Source: Clostridiales bacterium (GTDB lineage Bacteria; Bacillota; Clostridia; Christensenellales; Borkfalkiaceae). From it: a DNA stretch of 64,000 bases. The stretch spans positions 1-64,000 of the forward strand of contig SVHO01000001.1 of the NCBI GenBank assembly GCA_015055725.1. Reading direction: 5' to 3'. The translations under genes and the position numbers were made by a program. Positions within the stretch are counted from its first letter, which is position 1. The number at the start of each line of letters is the position of its first letter. Positions 15,462-22,482 of this stretch are shown here, piece after piece. The notes beneath the pieces were generated by a model. It was not told the origin of the DNA. It ran no database searches and was given only the letters and a program-made list of their open reading frames with translations.

Positions 15462-18092
15462 ATGAAGTACGTTTACTTGTTTAGTGAAGGCAACGGCAAG
15501 ATGAGAGAGCTTCTTGGTGGTAAAGGTGCAAACCTTGCGGAAATGACTAAAATCGGTCTTCCCGTTCCCCAAGGCTTTACCATTAGCACCGAAGCTTGCA
15601 CAAGATATTATGAAGACGGAAAGCAAATCGGTGACGATATCATGGCTGAAATCATGGAGAATATCGTTAAAATGGAAGAAATTACGGGTAAAAAATTCGG
15701 CGACCTTGAAAACCCGTTATTAGTATCAGTTCGTTCAGGCGCAAGAGCATCAATGCCTGGTATGATGGATACGATACTTAACCTTGGTTTAAACGAACAA
15801 GTTGTTGAAGTTATGGCTGAAAAGTCTGGCAACGCAAGATGGGCTTACGACTGCTACAGAAGATTTATTCAAATGTATTCTGACGTAGTTATGGAAGTTG
15901 GTAAAAAATACTTTGAACAACTTATTGATAAAATGAAAGAAGAAAAGGGCGTTAAGCTTGACGTTGAACTTTCTGCTGACGACCTTAAAGAACTTGCAAA
16001 TCAATTCAAAGCTGAATACAAATCAAAACTTGGAACTGATTTCCCAACCGACCCCAAGGAACAACTTATCGGTGCGGTTAAAGCCGTTTTCCGTTCTTGG
16101 GACAACCCCCGTGCAAACGTTTATCGCCGTGATAACGATATTCCTTATAGCTGGGGTACTGCCGTTAACGTTCAAGCAATGGCTTTCGGTAATATGGGTG
16201 ACGATTGCGGTACTGGTGTTGCGTTTACGCGTGACCCTGCAACCGGTGAAAAGAAACTTATGGGTGAATTCTTAACCAACGCACAAGGTGAAGACGTTGT
16301 TGCTGGTGTTCGCACGCCAATGCCTATCGCTCAAATGGCTGAAAAATTCCCTGAAGCGTTCGCTCAATTTGAAAAGGTTTGCCAAATCCTTGAAGACCAC
16401 TATAGAGATATGCAAGATATGGAATTTACCGTTGAACACGGAAAACTCTATATGCTTCAAACGAGAAACGGTAAGCGTACTGCTGCCGCTGCTCTCAAAA
16501 TCGCTTGCGACTTAGTTGACGAAGGTATGATTGATGAAAAGCAAGCAGTTCTTATGATTGACCCAAGAAACCTTGACACTCTTTTGCACCCGCAATTCGA
16601 TGCTAAGGCATTGAAGTCTGCTGAGCCTATGGCTCGCGCGCTCGGCGCATCACCTGGTGCTGCTTGTGGTAAAATCGTTTTCACCGCTGAAGATGCAAAG
16701 ACTTGGAAAGAAAGAAACGAAAAAGTTATTCTCGTTCGTTTGGAAACTTCGCCTGAAGACATTGAAGGTATGAAAGCTTCTCAAGGTATCTTAACCGCAC
16801 GTGGTGGTATGACTTCTCACGCTGCCGTTGTTGCTCGTGGTATGGGTACTTGTTGTGTTTCTGGTTGCTCTGCAATCACCGATTTTGATGAAGACAACAA
16901 AACGTTCGTTCTTTCAGGCAAAACCTATAAGGAAGGCGACGTAATTTCTATCGACGGTTCAACCGGTAATATTTACGACGGAGAAATCCCCACCGTTGAC
17001 GCAACTATTTCAGGCGACTTCGGCAGAATTATGGCTTGGGCTGATAAATATAGAGTTCTTGGCGTTCGCACTAACGCAGACACTCCTAAGGATGCTTCAA
17101 AAGCACGTGAACTCGGCGCAGAAGGTATCGGCCTTTGCCGTACTGAACACATGTTCTTCGAAGGCAACAGAATTGATGCTTTCCGTGAAATGATTTGTTC
17201 TGACACGGTTGAAGCAAGGGAAAAAGCACTTGATAAAATTCTTCCCATGCAACAAGGCGACTTTGAAAAACTTTATGAAGCACTTGAAGGAAACCCTGTG
17301 ACAATCCGTTTCCTTGACCCACCGCTTCACGAATTCGTTCCTACTTCGGAATACGATATCGAACAACTTGCTAAAGCTCAAAATAAGACAACCGCTCAAA
17401 TCAAAGCGATTATCTCAAGCTTGCACGAAGCAAACCCAATGATGGGTCACCGTGGTTGCCGTCTTACCGTGACGTATCCTGAAATTGCAAAAATGCAAAC
17501 TAAGGCTGTTATCCGTGCGGCTATCAACGTTCAAAACAGACACCCCGATTGGAAAGTAGTTCCAGAAATTATGATTCCACTTGTTGGCGAAGTTAAAGAA
17601 CTTAAATACGTTAAAGAAATAGTCGTTGCAACTGCAAACGCTGAAATTGCAAACGCAAAATCAGACCTTAAGTATGAAGTTGGAACGATGATTGAAATTC
17701 CAAGAGCTTGCATCACCGCTGATGAAATCGCTAAAGAAGCAGAATTCTTCTGCTTTGGTACTAACGACTTAACTCAAATGACTTACGGCTTTAGCCGTGA
17801 CGACGCAGGCAAATTCCTTAACGCTTATTACGACACTAAGATTTTTGAAAACGACCCGTTCGCAAAAATCGACCAAAACGGTGTTGGTAAGTTGATGGAT
17901 ATGGCTGTTAAGTTTGGTCGTAGCGTTCGCGAAAACATGCACTGCGGTATTTGTGGTGAACACGGTGGTGACCCCTCATCAATCGAATTCTGCCACAAGA
18001 TTGGTCTTTCTTACGTTTCATGCTCACCTTTCCGCGTACCTATTGCAAGGCTCGCAGCAGCACAAGCACAACTTAAAAACCCAAGAAACTAA
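15462..18092 (+). CDS. ppdK: Pyruvate, phosphate dikinase
   Basis: GGKGANLAEM, TARGGMTSHAAVVARGMG, IMIPLVGEVKELK, FGTNDLTQMTYGFSRDD. Confidence 0.98.
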   Translation: MKYVYLFSEGNGKMRELLGGKGANLAEMTKIGLPVPQGFTISTEACTRYYEDGKQIGDDIMAEIMENIVKMEEITGKKFGDLENPLLVSVRSGARASMPGMMDTILNLGLNEQVVEVMAEKSGNARWAYDCYRRFIQMYSDVVMEVGKKYFEQLIDKMKEEKGVKLDVELSADDLKELANQFKAEYKSKLGTDFPTDPKEQLIGAVKAVFRSWDNPRANVYRRDNDIPYSWGTAVNVQAMAFGNMGDDCGTGVAFTRDPATGEKKLMGEFLTNAQGEDVVAGVRTPMPIAQMAEKFPEAFAQFEKVCQILEDHYRDMQDMEFTVEHGKLYMLQTRNGKRTAAAALKIACDLVDEGMIDEKQAVLMIDPRNLDTLLHPQFDAKALKSAEPMARALGASPGAACGKIVFTAEDAKTWKERNEKVILVRLETSPEDIEGMKASQGILTARGGMTSHAAVVARGMGTCCVSGCSAITDFDEDNKTFVLSGKTYKEGDVISIDGSTGNIYDGEIPTVDATISGDFGRIMAWADKYRVLGVRTNADTPKDASKARELGAEGIGLCRTEHMFFEGNRIDAFREMICSDTVEAREKALDKILPMQQGDFEKLYEALEGNPVTIRFLDPPLHEFVPTSEYDIEQLAKAQNKTTAQIKAIISSLHEANPMMGHRGCRLTVTYPEIAKMQTKAVIRAAINVQNRHPDWKVVPEIMIPLVGEVKELKYVKEIVVATANAEIANAKSDLKYEVGTMIEIPRACITADEIAKEAEFFCFGTNDLTQMTYGFSRDDAGKFLNAYYDTKIFENDPFAKIDQNGVGKLMDMAVKFGRSVRENMHCGICGEHGGDPSSIEFCHKIGLSYVSCSPFRVPIARLAAAQAQLKNPRN

Positions 18093-18103
18093 TAGAAAAG
18101 TTT

Positions 18104-18146
18104 TAATAAAAAGCCGATGGCGTTCGCCATCGGCTTTTTGTGTTGT
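18104..18146 (+). terminator. ppdK terminator; left copy of a perfect 43-bp direct repeat
   Basis: TAATAAAAAGCCGATGGCGTTCGCCATCGGCTTTTTGTGTTGT. Confidence 0.92.
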
Positions 18147-18194
18147 TATATTTAAGACGAAAAAGCATAATAAAGTATTCTTAAAATGCTAACT

Positions 18195-18210
18195 ATCCCA
18201 AATTTAGGAC
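18195..18210. promoter_or_regulatory. Operator-like site ATCCCAAATTTAGGAC upstream of DnaB-like ATPase
   Basis: Shares ATCCCAAATTTRGGA with the palindrome at 21010-21025. Confidence 0.4.
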
Positions 18211-18248
18211 ATCAAACTTTGTATTATAAAACAAAAAAGGAGAAATTT

Positions 18249-18935
18249 ATGGATAGAATTTATACGGGTTTTGAAAGTTTGGACAAACACTTAAAAATTT
18301 GTAAAGGCGATTTAGTTGTAATAGGTGGTAATCCAGCGATAGGTAAAACGTGTTTAATGTGCTCTATGATAGAAAGAACTATGGCGAAACAAAAAATTTT
18401 ATTTTTCACTATGCAAACAAATAAGCATAAGGCTATTGATAGAATTAGTGTTTTAAGTTGTGATAATAGTACATTATGGATTTATGAAAGTATTGATAAT
18501 TTTGAAAAATTATTATATAAAATTATGGAGCATAAAGATAATTTTGGAGTTGACGTGATTTATATTGATAATTTTGAAGATTTTTTAATTTATTCAAATT
18601 GTTATGAAAAAGAACTCGTGTTAAAGCTTTTAGATTTGGCAAAAAAACTTAAAATTGCAATAATTGTTAGCGACGTTACGTATTGGATTGATAGAAGGCG
18701 TTCGATATATAGGCATTTAAGGCATAAAGAATTTATAAAATATGCCGATAAAATCATAACGATAAATCGCCCTGATAGAACTGCAACAGAAAAAGAAATT
18801 AGAGACGGGTTGGTGGAAAAATATGTTGCTGAAATTAGAATTGATAAAGACTTGGATGAATATTACAGTCCTTGGATAAATTTAAAATTTGATAACAATT
18901 CTTTAACTTTTAATGAAATTCCTAAAACGCCTTGA
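18249..18935 (+). CDS. Stand-alone DnaB-C/RecA-like P-loop ATPase (no DnaB N-terminal domain)
   Basis: Walker A GGNPAIGKT, FFTMQT (DnaB FFSLEM-like), Walker B VIYIDNFEDF, LRHKEFIKYADKIITINRP; RBS aaaggaga. Confidence 0.75.
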   Translation: MDRIYTGFESLDKHLKICKGDLVVIGGNPAIGKTCLMCSMIERTMAKQKILFFTMQTNKHKAIDRISVLSCDNSTLWIYESIDNFEKLLYKIMEHKDNFGVDVIYIDNFEDFLIYSNCYEKELVLKLLDLAKKLKIAIIVSDVTYWIDRRRSIYRHLRHKEFIKYADKIITINRPDRTATEKEIRDGLVEKYVAEIRIDKDLDEYYSPWINLKFDNNSLTFNEIPKTP

Positions 18936-18976
18936 ATTATTGCGACAATTTTGGTATAATAATTATACTAAAATAA
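18933..18976 (+). promoter_or_regulatory. Promoter of WYL gene with overlapping inverted repeat
   Basis: TTGAAT-17-TATAAT; ATTTTGGTATAATAATTATACTAAAAT nearly palindromic over the -10. Confidence 0.5.
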
Positions 18977-18983
18977 AGGCGAT

Positions 18984-19973
18984 ATGGAAATGGAAAGTTT
19001 TGAACCAAAAAAGTTGGCGTTAATTAGAGTTTTGCAAATTTTAGAAAAGCATAGCGACTGTGAACATCCAATAAAGCACGATAAAATAGTTGACCTTTTA
19101 GAGAGCGAATACGGGCTTACAATTGAAAGAAAGGCAATCGGCAGAAATATATCGCTACTTAATGAAGCGGGATATGATATTGAAACTACAAAAAAAGGCT
19201 CTTATCTTGCCGAACGCACGTTTGAAGATAGCGAACTAAAACTCTTAATAGACGGTGTTTTATCAAGTAAACACATTACGCCCAAGCAATCGAAAGAGTT
19301 AATTGAAAAACTTTGTGGTCAGGCGAATAAGTATTTCAAAAAGCACGTTAAAAATATCTATTCGGTGCAAGACTGGAATAAAACTGAAAACGTTGCCGTT
19401 TTTTATAACATTGAAATTATTGACGAAGCCATTGAAACGGACAAACAAATCAAGTTTGATTATAATAAGTACGGCGCAGATAAGAAAATGCACCGAAGTG
19501 CAATTCACACGGTTAGTCCTTATCAAATGATATTGCATAATCAACGCTATTATTTAATGGGGTATAATGAAAAATGGCAACATATTCAGTATTACCGTAT
19601 GGACAGGATTACCGATATTGAACTTATAGATAAAAATCGAACGCCGTTAAAATCAATTAACGGTTTTGAAAGTGGAATTGATTATAAACGATTTTCTTCT
19701 TCAATGCCGTATATGTTTTACGATGAACCACAAGTGGTTGAATTTATTGCAGACGGTTGGGCGATTGACCAAATTATAGACTGGTTTGGTAAAGATATTA
19801 AGATAGAAGAGCGAGAAGACGGACGTTTTTTAATTAAGGTTAAAGCAAGTATAAATGCAATGGAATACTGGTCAATGCAATACATGAACGCCGTTGAAAT
19901 TTTATCACCATTAGAATTAAGAGAACGAATAAAGAAAAATGTTCAAGTCGCAAACGAGAAATATAAGGATTAA
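18984..19973 (+). CDS. WYL-domain transcriptional regulator with N-terminal HTH
   Basis: N-terminal winged HTH (ALIRVLQILEKHSD...RKAIGRNISLLNEAGYDIE), central WYL-type (SPYQMILHNQRYYLMGYNEKWQHIQYYRMDRI), WCX-like C-terminus. Confidence 0.9.
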   Translation: MEMESFEPKKLALIRVLQILEKHSDCEHPIKHDKIVDLLESEYGLTIERKAIGRNISLLNEAGYDIETTKKGSYLAERTFEDSELKLLIDGVLSSKHITPKQSKELIEKLCGQANKYFKKHVKNIYSVQDWNKTENVAVFYNIEIIDEAIETDKQIKFDYNKYGADKKMHRSAIHTVSPYQMILHNQRYYLMGYNEKWQHIQYYRMDRITDIELIDKNRTPLKSINGFESGIDYKRFSSSMPYMFYDEPQVVEFIADGWAIDQIIDWFGKDIKIEEREDGRFLIKVKASINAMEYWSMQYMNAVEILSPLELRERIKKNVQVANEKYKD

Positions 19974-19984
19974 GGAGAAATAAA

Positions 19985-21010
19985 ATGAGTCAATTTGTTT
20001 ATTTTCAAAAGTATCACGGGAAAGAGAATGTGCACTCTAGCAACGTCTTATATATGTTGCAGAAAGTATATTACTATAATCCTAGAAAATTTTATAAGTT
20101 TTTAGAAGAGCTTTTGGAGTCTGAAGAGCCCGATAATTGGATACTACAATTTAAGACACAAGAAAAACACGCTAAAGGTGTGACGGATTTTAGTATTATA
20201 CAAAAATCATTTAAGATAGTTGTGGAAGCTAAAGAAAAGTATAATCACTTCGATATTACACAAATTGAAAGACACTTGGAGGCACTTAAAAACGAATCTA
20301 TAGAGAACAAGATTCTTTTGACTCTTGCCCCATTTGAGAATGACCAAAATGTTTTTCTAAGCCTTAAGCAAAAGCATAAAGAAATAATATTTTTAGCGAT
20401 AACATATAAACAGCTATATGAAAAATTATTAAGTGTTATAGATGAAATGAGAGATTATGAACTAAAAGACATGGTTGAGGAATTTTATGAATATTGTAAT
20501 GCCGAAGATTTAATTGATGAAACGGACGATACAATCATGGTTCGTCTTGCTGGTTCAACAATTGACTTTAATATAAAAGAAGAGAATAGGATTTATTATG
20601 ATAAGGCGGGGGGAAAGTACTCTGGTTTTAGATATATTGGTTTATATAATAACAAAAGCGTAAAATATGTAGGAAAAGTAGTTATGATTGTTGAAGCAAG
20701 ACTCGAAAATCAAGAAATTCAATGTGAATTAAAATATTCAAAAAATGGGAAAATTGATGAAAATACATTAAAACGCATAAAGAACGCAATGGATAATCAA
20801 GCACAGCTATATGATAATACAGATATTCCACATTACTATTACCTTGTAGATAAATTTTGTCCTATTGAAAATTTTACAAAGAAAAGCAATAGAGCACTAT
20901 ATGGCAAGAAGAAGTTCTTTTTAAGAGATTTGGGCTTAAATCCAAATGCTGAAGTTGAAGAAATTGCAGAAAAAATGAAAAATAGATTTTGGGAGGACTT
21001 GCCTTTTTAA
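19985..21010 (+). CDS. PD-(D/E)XK-type nuclease candidate with additional C-terminal domain
   Basis: GVTDFSIIQKSFKIVVEAKEKYNHFDITQIERHL gives D-x(n)-ExK; C-terminal YSGFRYIGLYNNKSVKYVGKVVMIVEARL block. Confidence 0.7.
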   Translation: MSQFVYFQKYHGKENVHSSNVLYMLQKVYYYNPRKFYKFLEELLESEEPDNWILQFKTQEKHAKGVTDFSIIQKSFKIVVEAKEKYNHFDITQIERHLEALKNESIENKILLTLAPFENDQNVFLSLKQKHKEIIFLAITYKQLYEKLLSVIDEMRDYELKDMVEEFYEYCNAEDLIDETDDTIMVRLAGSTIDFNIKEENRIYYDKAGGKYSGFRYIGLYNNKSVKYVGKVVMIVEARLENQEIQCELKYSKNGKIDENTLKRIKNAMDNQAQLYDNTDIPHYYYLVDKFCPIENFTKKSNRALYGKKKFFLRDLGLNPNAEVEEIAEKMKNRFWEDLPF

Positions 21011-21025
21011 TCCCAAATTTGGGAT
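21010..21025. promoter_or_regulatory. Perfect 16-bp palindrome ATCCCAAATTTGGGAT
   Basis: Self-complementary; between the nuclease and the small ORFs. Confidence 0.5.
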
Positions 21026-21070
21026 AATAAATATGTTAAACTCTTCTTGTAAAACGCAAGGGGAGTTTTT

Positions 21071-21184
21071 ATGAAAAAAGGGAACGAGAAGAAAAAATTT
21101 TTAGATTTTTTAAGTGGTTTTGCAATTGGTTATTTTATAACTGATTTTATATTTTCATTATTTATACCAAGAAAAAAGAAATAA
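21071..21184 (+). CDS. Small single-TM protein (37 aa)
   Basis: MKKGNEKKKFLDFLSGFAIGYFITDFIFSLFIPRKKK; RBS aagggga upstream. Confidence 0.5.
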   Translation: MKKGNEKKKFLDFLSGFAIGYFITDFIFSLFIPRKKK

Positions 21185-21198
21185 AAGGAGAAGAGAGA

Positions 21199-21363
21199 GT
21201 GAAAACGTTTATAATTAAGTATTATTTAACGGAAAGTGCATACAGAATTGGTATACCTGCTTTTACTGAAACTTATAGGGGTGATAGAAATTCGGCAGTG
21301 AATTGGGCTCAAAACAAAGTAAGGACATCTAATTTTAAGTTTTACGATATTCAAGAAAAATAA
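21199..21363 (+). CDS. Small protein (54 aa), GTG start
   Basis: VKTFIIKYYLTESAYRIGIPAFTETYRGDRNSAVNWAQNKVRTSNFKFYDIQEK; RBS aaaggaga. Confidence 0.5.
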   Translation: MKTFIIKYYLTESAYRIGIPAFTETYRGDRNSAVNWAQNKVRTSNFKFYDIQEK

Positions 21364-21403
21364 TAAAAAGCCGATGGCGTTCGCCATCGGCTTTTTGTGT
21401 TGT
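21361..21403 (+). terminator. Right copy of the 43-bp terminator repeat
   Basis: Identical to 18104-18146. Confidence 0.92.
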
Positions 21404-21465
21404 GCTTCTTTTATAATAGATAAAATAGGCGTGAATTATGCGGGAGTTTTAGCATATAATTTATT

Positions 21466-22482
21466 ATGTTAAATAAAGCAATAATCGACCTTAATAAACT
21501 TATAAAAAACGCAAAGGCAGTCAAAAGTAAACTTAATAACGGCGTTAAATTTTGCGCTGTGGTTAAAGCAGATGCGTACGGGCACGGTGCATGTGAAATT
21601 TCAAACGCACTTTATCCTTACGTTGACGCTTTTGCCGTTGCGCTTGCAGAAGAAGGGGTACAGCTTCGCCGAGCGGGGATAGATAAACCTATAATTTGTT
21701 TAAATCCACCTTTTAATAAAGATGCGCGCCTTTTTGTTGAATATAATTTGACCGCAACCGTTTATACGCGCGAGCATTTAGACCTTTTAGAAGAGTGGGC
21801 AAAAAAAGTGAACGGGCGAGCATGCGTTCACGTTAAAGTTAACACGGGCATGAATAGGCAAGGAATAGACGTTGGCACGCAATTAAAAGATTTTTTGGAT
21901 TATTTGGTGCGTAAAAAGCGGGTGGTTTTAGACGGCTTATATTCACACTTGTCTTGTCCGGAGAATAAAAAAAGGTTAAAGTTTCAGGTAAATAAATTTT
22001 TAGTTGCAAAAAAACTTATTAAGGGTTATAATAATAATGCAACTTGTCACTTATCGGCAAGCGGTGGTTTTTTATCTGGCGTGCAAGAAGATATGGTGCG
22101 CATTGGAATTTTGCTTTACGGTTACAAACCTTTTAAAAGCGATAAAATTCACGTTGAGCCTATAATGAAAGTTTACGCACCCGTGCTTTGCAAAAGGCGG
22201 TTAAAAAAAGGCGAAAGCGCGCTTTACGGCGTGTGTAAAAGCAAAAAGGCGCAAACGATATCGCTAATTAGATACGGCTATGCCGACGGACTTTTTAGGG
22301 CGCGCGTTAAGGGGCAATTCAACAATCGCTGTATGGATATAACGGCGATTACTGAAAACGTTAACGGAAAATATTGCTTAGTTATTAAAGATGCGGAAAA
22401 AATCGCTAAGCGGTATAAAACGATAAATTACGAAATATTAACCAAGTGTGCCGTTCGCGCACAAAAAATTTACATAAGGTGA
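21466..22482 (+). CDS. alr: Alanine racemase
   Basis: CAVVKADAYGHGA PLP-lysine motif; SHLSCPE; RIGILLYGYKP. Confidence 0.93.
   Translation: MLNKAIIDLNKLIKNAKAVKSKLNNGVKFCAVVKADAYGHGACEISNALYPYVDAFAVALAEEGVQLRRAGIDKPIICLNPPFNKDARLFVEYNLTATVYTREHLDLLEEWAKKVNGRACVHVKVNTGMNRQGIDVGTQLKDFLDYLVRKKRVVLDGLYSHLSCPENKKRLKFQVNKFLVAKKLIKGYNNNATCHLSASGGFLSGVQEDMVRIGILLYGYKPFKSDKIHVEPIMKVYAPVLCKRRLKKGESALYGVCKSKKAQTISLIRYGYADGLFRARVKGQFNNRCMDITAITENVNGKYCLVIKDAEKIAKRYKTINYEILTKCAVRAQKIYIR

What the first reader, a model, noticed from the sequence alone, without database searches (positions are those of the whole stretch)
18249..21363. Candidate undescribed defence-like cassette: DnaB-C ATPase + WYL regulator + PD-(D/E)XK nuclease + two small proteins
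WYL regulators commonly control anti-phage systems, and the nuclease and P-loop ATPase are typical effector/motor parts. The ATPase resembles only the RecA-like C-terminal half of DnaB (Walker A GGNPAIGKT, Walker B VIYIDN). Order is ATPase, WYL, nuclease, 37-aa membrane peptide, 54-aa peptide. I know no named system with this exact composition; function is inference.
Basis: inference. Interest (0 to 1): 0.75.

Follow-up and report, generated by a model that had tools for sequence, protein, structure and literature searches.

The report
WYL-controlled cassette with swappable nucleases
A mobile gut-bacterial gene cassette keeps the same control gene in different hosts but carries a different DNA-cutting, probably anti-virus, gene beside it each time; the window holds one version with a nuclease of an unnamed family.

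Summary
The five ORFs are real, lie where stated, and form a mobile cassette between ppdK and alr. Seven cassettes with near-identical WYL regulators (85-97% aa) sit at different sites in related MAGs, one of them in another family. Their neighbours differ. The downstream slot holds the window's Mrr-like PD-(D/E)XK nuclease, a second distant PD-(D/E)XK, a GIY-YIG nuclease matching PADLOC UzuA (Uzume), a PDC-S26 nuclease, or an unassigned 208-aa protein. Identity collapses at the WYL stop codon and inside the ATPase gene. More distant loci keep the layout ATPase-WYL-nuclease: a homologue of the window nuclease, PD-T4-3/CMoRE (a proven Type IV nuclease), McrBC. Operator-like sites, learned only from other genomes, fall at promoters of all three transcription units and are the best four hits in 64 kb. 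A 43-bp duplicate of the ppdK terminator, found nowhere else in the genome, brackets the cassette; three relatives lack the insert. Best reading: a WYL-repressed, methylase-free, Type IV-like nuclease cassette with exchangeable payloads. It is a new variant of a known theme: WYL regulators guarding mosaic defence loci. Function is inferred.

The parts
15462..18092 (+). ppdK (pyruvate phosphate dikinase), upstream host neighbour (context)
   Evidence: ORF of 876 aa; homologues lie directly before alr in congeners
18104..18146 (+). Left copy of a 43-bp direct repeat, a complete intrinsic terminator (the ppdK terminator)
   Evidence: 100% identity to 21361-21403; hairpin core occurs only at these two places in the 1.48-Mb genome; dG -26.0
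18187..18208 (-). Operator-like site O1 (palindromic, stronger on the - strand) before the ATPase
   Evidence: PWM built from other genomes scores 14.2, against a best outside-cassette score of 11.2
18249..18935 (+). Stand-alone DnaB-C/RecA-like ATPase, 228 aa (exchangeable upstream gene)
   Evidence: Pfam DnaB_C 2.8e-11; DnaB structures in PDB by profile, best 2.5e-12; 80/74/55/32% id in other cassettes
18944..18965 (+). Operator/promoter O2 before WYL (GACAATTTTGGTATAATAATTA, overlaps -10)
   Evidence: PWM score 27.0; conserved in six cassettes
18984..19973 (+). WYL-WCX transcription regulator, 329 aa (constant core)
   Evidence: Pfam WYL/WCX; 85-97% aa identity in seven cassettes; dN/dS 0.03-0.09 among six of them
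19985..21010 (+). PD-(D/E)XK (Mrr_cat-like) nuclease, 341 aa (exchangeable downstream payload)
   Evidence: PF04471 1.4e-4; D68/E81/K83 invariant; weak Foldseek hits to MspJI, AspBHI, XPF/Hef
21012..21033 (+). Operator/promoter O3 before the small-ORF unit; perfect palindrome ATCCCAAATTTGGGAT at 21010-21025
   Evidence: PWM score 29.4, best site in 64 kb; 0 chance matches expected for the 23-mer with up to 3 mismatches
21071..21184 (+). 37-aa predicted single-span membrane peptide
   Evidence: homologue in G011 cassette, 42% over 31 aa, E=1.25e-5
21199..21363 (+). 54-aa small protein (conserved 3' end of cassettes, subtype A)
   Evidence: 91% (G011), 89% (L068), 57-63% (G009, L072, L074) identity
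21361..21403 (+). Right copy of the 43-bp direct repeat/terminator
21466..22482 (+). alr (alanine racemase), downstream host neighbour (context)
   Evidence: ppdK-alr adjacency without the cassette in G019, G043 and G022

Best explanation
A mobile, WYL-controlled anti-phage cassette with exchangeable payloads. Shown by sequence: (1) the WYL gene is the constant core; (2) the downstream gene is swapped between unrelated nucleases, several matching known defence families; (3) the upstream P-loop ATPase is swapped independently; (4) three promoters share an operator-like motif overlapping -10; (5) the cassette was inserted between ppdK and alr and is bracketed by a duplicated terminator. Inferred: the WYL dimer represses all three units in uninfected cells and is released by an infection or DNA-damage ligand (possibly ssDNA, known for other WYL proteins). 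The nuclease, which has no partner methylase, then cuts modified or otherwise foreign DNA as Type IV enzymes do (as do McrBC and CMoRE, which fill the same slot beside WYL relatives). The DnaB-C ATPase more likely senses or reports replicating or single-stranded phage DNA, or acts as a separate payload, than serves as the nuclease's motor.
For: Constant core and variable flanks: WYL dS 0.54-0.85 with dN 0.02-0.05 between five cassettes, while ATPase dN is 0.10-0.79. In 60-nt bins G000 vs G009 identity runs 0.90, 0.77, 0.4-0.6 (ATPase core), 0.90 from 18909 through WYL, then 0.35 at the nuclease start. Different sites: ppdK/alr, parB/coaE, glycosyltransferase/mgtE, next to purB; 92% identical WYL in another family, G352. 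Payload identity: UzuA 1e-45 to 1e-51, PDC-S26 3.7e-54; McrBC; PD-T4-3 1.5e-62 and PDC-S26 9.5e-36. Recombination scar: L074 has WYL, PDC-S26, a 52-codon WYL C-terminal remnant, UzuA, DnaB-C ATPase, 54-aa ORF. Same layout in distant loci: L183, L186, L189, L060, L218. Operators: cross-genome PWM puts its best four window hits inside the cassette; CapW and BrxR bind comparable palindromes or inverted repeats (PMC9122588, PMC9122601). CMoRE = PD-T4-3 is Type IV (PMC12923530). Sites without the insert in relatives.
Against: No functional data. The window nuclease matches no PADLOC model. Its AF2 model is mediocre (pLDDT 70) and the fold hits are weak. Many WYL relatives (roughly 45-60% identical) sit beside non-defence genes such as a zinc alcohol dehydrogenase or a ClC-type channel, and one 80% WYL (G016) stands without a cassette. 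The cassette is not in a defence island. Modification dependence of the nuclease is extrapolated from slot-mates. Which DNA the WYL binds, and its ligand, are unknown. All cassettes come from MAGs.
Confidence: 0.66

Rival explanations
1. A fixed, co-adapted multi-protein defence system: the ATPase is the translocase or motor of the nuclease and the small proteins are subunits.
For: ATPase-WYL-nuclease order is conserved in several cassettes and in L183 and L186 with an AAA/M41 ATPase.
Against: ATPase and downstream protein do not co-vary: G000, G011 and G034 share a 72-80% ATPase but have three different downstream proteins; G034 and L068 share a 95% nuclease with a 54% ATPase; L072 has a truncated ATPase with intact WYL and UzuA. 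The nuclease also occurs without a WYL/ATPase partner in viral-collection contigs and in an AlwI R-M locus.
Confidence: 0.15
2. Selfish mobile cassette: the nuclease is a homing-type or maintenance endonuclease that spreads or keeps the element, and defence is secondary.
For: Payloads include GIY-YIG proteins with weak PHROG homing-endonuclease matches; the cassette is mobile and sits between genes; some cassettes lie in TIR elements.
Against: Best matches are defence families (UzuA, PDC-S26, PD-T4-3, McrBC); insertion sites differ from host to host, unlike homing; WYL repression suits a costly defence gene.
Confidence: 0.1
3. Ordinary housekeeping: a WYL-regulated DNA-repair or stress operon responding to DNA damage.
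For: WYL proteins such as DriD, SiwR and PafBC control DNA-damage responses (cited in PMC12409362 and PMC9122588); the ATPase is DnaB/RadA-like.
Against: Patchy distribution (WYL at 80% or more in 5 of 44 congeners), mobility, payload turnover and matches to restriction/defence families.
Confidence: 0.08

Closest known systems
BrxR/CapW-type WYL regulators of mosaic defence loci (PMC9122601, PMC9122589, PMC9122588)
   Same: wHTH-WYL-WCX layout; palindromes or inverted repeats of about 20 bp at or over -10, at more than one promoter of the locus; association with varied payloads, Type IV restriction among the commonest.
   Different: No sequence-detectable relation to a solved chain (profile A1 finds no PDB chain at E<=0.01); found here in uncultured Clostridia; a compact about 3-kb mobile cassette with one slot on each side of the WYL.
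SXT ICE hotspot with a WYL ORF upstream of variable defence systems (Vibrio; cited in PMC9122589)
   Same: A conserved WYL gene with interchangeable defence modules.
   Different: There inside an ICE hotspot; here a free-standing cassette scattered over chromosomal terminator regions and shuffled by recombination around the WYL gene.
PD-T4-3/CMoRE, a Type IV GIY-YIG nuclease (PMC12923530)
   Same: A PD-T4-3 homologue fills the downstream slot after a 59% WYL and an AAA/M41 ATPase (L186); single nuclease, no methylase.
   Different: The window's nuclease is PD-(D/E)XK and unrelated in sequence.
Uzume (UzuA) and PDC-S26 (PADLOC)
   Same: Occupy the slot in G009, L072, L074 (UzuA) and L074 (PDC-S26) next to 85-96% identical WYL.
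   Different: Mechanism of these families is not known to me; the window nuclease matches neither.
Mrr/MspJI-type modification-dependent nucleases
   Same: Mrr_cat match; MspJI and AspBHI among the weak fold hits; D-ExK triad.
   Different: Low similarity; C-terminal half not assigned; substrate unknown.

Membership tests
BrxR/CapW WYL defence regulators | wHTH + WYL + WCX domains | tested here: met
   WYL 4.9e-13, WCX 9.5e-6; HTH_11 only sub-threshold (0.038)
BrxR/CapW WYL defence regulators | Palindromic operators at or over -10 of the regulated promoters | tested here: met
   In silico only: three sites, cross-genome PWM; compare PMC9122588, PMC9122601
BrxR/CapW WYL defence regulators | Sequence homology to characterised BrxR/CapW proteins | tested here: not met
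   No PDB chain at E<=0.01 with profile A1, although both papers report crystal structures
BrxR/CapW WYL defence regulators | Repression relieved by a ligand | not testable with these tools
   needs EMSA and reporter assays
Type IV (modification-dependent) restriction enzyme | Nuclease without a cognate methyltransferase | tested here: met
   No methylase between ppdK and alr
Type IV (modification-dependent) restriction enzyme | Nuclease catalytic fold and residues | tested here: met
   Mrr_cat PF04471 above cut-off; D68/E81/K83 invariant; weak fold support
Type IV (modification-dependent) restriction enzyme | Cleaves modified DNA only | not testable with these tools
   inferred from slot-mates McrBC and PD-T4-3/CMoRE
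Uzume / PDC-S26 / PD-T4-3 | Window nuclease matches the family model | tested here: not met
   No PADLOC match for the window nuclease; only slot-mates match
DnaB replicative helicase | N-terminal domain plus full RecA-like C domain | tested here: not met
   228 aa, no N-terminal domain; DnaB_C match covers residues 4-68 only
Mobile insertion cassette (TIR-bounded passenger genes) | Terminal inverted repeats of an IS at both ends | tested here: not met
   Absent from the window copy; present in G009 and L072 and at the right end of L068
Prophage/plasmid remnant | Phage or plasmid genes next to it | tested here: not met
   Housekeeping neighbours; no viral contigs relative for ATPase or WYL

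The most novel reading that the evidence does not exclude
A transferable defence chassis: a fixed WYL regulator and its operators provide a ready-made, repressed expression platform into which unrelated nucleases (downstream) and P-loop ATPases (upstream) are exchanged by recombination in and around the WYL gene, and which spreads between species, partly on transposase-less elements that insert into the loops of intrinsic terminators.
Probability: 0.4. Interest if true: 0.75.

Novelty: new variant of a known kind. Interest (0 to 1): 0.62.

Why it matters
It turns a guess about one locus into a comparative rule: the genes next to this WYL core form a natural catalogue of anti-phage nucleases, known (UzuA, PDC-S26) and unnamed. 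Searching the slot should find new defence enzymes, and one regulator controlling unrelated payloads makes it possible to test what WYL proteins sense. It also adds an example of how costly defence genes may move and stay repressed on arrival in small-genome gut Clostridia.

Tried and rejected
Known-system match: PADLOC, NCBIfam and PHROGs gave only WYL or generic DnaB/RecA hits for the window proteins. Phage origin: WYL and ATPase had no relative in viral contigs, the nuclease none in the phage records; WYL matches in phage records are 34% or less among those listed, and nuclease matches in viral contigs are 32-37%. AlphaFold of the 208-aa G011 protein alone was useless (pLDDT 39); its HNH-like motif was noted by eye only, so it is left unassigned. 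Dispersed repeat as cause of the 43-bp duplication: rejected, only two copies in the genome. Nuclease-specific motor role of the ATPase: rejected as best reading, because ATPase and nuclease do not co-vary. The 54-aa protein had no plasmid match. 'PDC-S26' is in no paper of the library.

Full report
Observation. The ORFs are as described. The ATPase starts at 18249 behind GGAGAAA and matches only DnaB_C (residues 4-68). The regulator has WYL and WCX domains. The nuclease matches Mrr_cat above its curated cut-off. PADLOC, PHROGs and NCBIfam name no system for them. The neighbours are housekeeping genes: ppdK upstream, alr downstream.

Insertion. In congeners G019, G043 and G022 ppdK is followed by alr without the cassette; G019 and G043 each show one clear terminator in the gap. 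Other genes occupy the same gap in G010 (an RHH-like protein plus a 123-aa ORF) and G034 (a DegV-like gene), so the gap accepts insertions repeatedly. How the terminator was doubled is not known.

Constant core, variable flanks. Searches of congeners and of genome contigs gave seven cassettes whose WYL proteins are 85-97% identical, in MAGs where Alr is only 50-64% identical between the window genome and other members of the genus. One (L072 = G352) is in another family of the order. They lie at different chromosomal sites. Between five of them WYL has dS 0.54-0.85 and dN 0.02-0.05; PPDK of G000 and G009 has dS 1.22. The ATPase is 80, 74, 55 and 32% identical. The boundary is sharp: G000 vs G009 identity is 0.90 over the first 60 nt of the ATPase and 0.77 over the next 60, about 0.4-0.6 in its core, 0.90 again from 18909 through WYL, and 0.35 at the nuclease start. 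In L074 a 52-codon WYL C-terminal remnant separates two payloads, as expected of recombination within WYL.

Payloads. Downstream of near-identical WYL genes: the window nuclease (G000); a distant PD-(D/E)XK shared by G034 and L068; GIY-YIG nucleases matching PADLOC UzuA in G009, L072 and L074; a PDC-S26 nuclease in L074; and a 208-aa protein in G011 that I could not assign (an HNH-like motif was seen by eye only). The ATPase does not co-vary with the payload: G000, G011 and G034 share an ATPase type with three different downstream proteins, and G034 and L068 share a 95% nuclease with a 54% ATPase.

Distant loci. L183 has AAA/M41 ATPase, WYL (62%) and a 33-35% homologue of the window nuclease. 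L186 has AAA/M41 ATPase, WYL (59%) and PD-T4-3 (1.5e-62). L189 has a DnaB-C ATPase before WYL (61.5%); its contig ends soon after. L060 has AAA/M41 ATPase, WYL (66%), an AAA_5 (McrB-like) protein and McrC. L197 has WYL and PDC-S26. The nuclease family occurs in 5 of 396 order genomes, and in three (G000, G102, G152) it lies beside a WYL gene and a P-loop ATPase (for G152 the WYL and ATPase were recognised from the translated sequence, without a profile search). A 47% homologue lies in a methylase/AlwI restriction locus. Against this, many other WYL relatives have non-defence neighbours, so the association belongs to part of the family only.

Operators. A PWM built only from promoters of the other cassettes has its four best hits in 64 kb inside this cassette: 29.4 (21012), 27.0 (18944), and 15.8 and 14.2 on the opposite strand at 21002 and 18187; the best outside site scores 11.2. 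They lie before the ATPase, WYL and small-ORF units. CapW binds palindromes of about 20 bp over -10 (PMC9122588); BrxR binds inverted repeats at two promoters of its island (PMC9122601).

Mechanism. Shown: mobility, modular exchange, shared operator-like sites, nuclease residues (D68, E81, K83 invariant in 10 relatives), no methylase. Inferred: WYL repression and release, and Type IV-like cutting of modified DNA. The slot-mates with known biochemistry support the last point: PD-T4-3 (CMoRE) cuts 5hmC or glucosyl-5hmC DNA (PMC12923530), McrBC cuts methylated DNA (general knowledge). The ATPase's role is the weakest part; a sensor or a separate payload fits the lack of co-variation and the truncated copy in L072 better than a motor.

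Mobility route. G009 and L072 cassettes have terminal inverted repeats GGGCGTTTCCCATAGGGATTT / GGGCGTTGCTCTTAGGGATTT (degenerate at the right end of G009). Similar ends bound short elements with a GNAT or EamA-type gene in congeners. Joining their flanks restores a terminator-like hairpin: dG -13.7 to -18.8 against control means of -5.5 to -8.5, and weaker in G009 (-11.1 against -6.1). No transposase was found inside them. The window copy lacks these ends, so this route is not shown for it.

Place among known things. WYL regulators at mosaic defence loci, Type IV restriction included, are known (PMC9122601; the SXT case is cited in PMC9122589). What is new here is the compact form: a constant WYL core with independent slots on both sides, moving between species in uncultured Clostridia, with an unnamed nuclease family in the window copy.

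Noticed in passing
L121 366-1521, L130 1501-2679, L127 1501-2442, L072 393-3610, L056 7290-10817: A family of transposase-less elements with ends GGGCGTT..C.C.TAGGGATTT carries single unrelated genes (GNAT, EamA-type transporter, defence cassettes) and sits inside the loops of host intrinsic terminators; 24 end matches in 12 of 44 congeners. Possibly a terminator-targeting mobile insertion cassette family.
   Followed up: partly
window 18093-21465; L084 and L094: The ppdK-alr gap is an insertion hotspot: the WYL cassette in G000, an RHH-like gene plus a 123-aa ORF in G010, a DegV-like gene in G034, no extra gene in G019, G043 and G022.
   Followed up: partly
L074 750-3949: Tandem payload array: WYL, PDC-S26 nuclease, 52-codon WYL remnant, UzuA-like GIY-YIG, DnaB-C ATPase (285 aa), 54-aa ORF.
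   Followed up: partly
L190 6035-7327, L040 242-1489: Weak uracil-DNA-glycosylase-superfamily protein (430 aa; PF03167 below cut-off) directly downstream of a 58% WYL; a similar-looking 415-aa protein (compared by eye only) follows the WYL in L040. Perhaps another payload aimed at modified phage DNA.
   Followed up: no
L183 3483-4880, L186 3691-4971, L060 7563-8825, L077 6986-8350: AAA ATPases with a Peptidase_M41-like domain (FtsH-like, distant IetA matches) repeatedly next to WYL genes, taking the place of the DnaB-C ATPase.
   Followed up: partly
L056 10170-10373 and 10398-10586; L072 3004-3168: Small CxxC-rich proteins replace the 37-aa membrane peptide in GIY-YIG cassettes G009 and L072; the 54-aa protein is of a second subtype in GIY-YIG cassettes (G009, L072, L074).
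   Followed up: no
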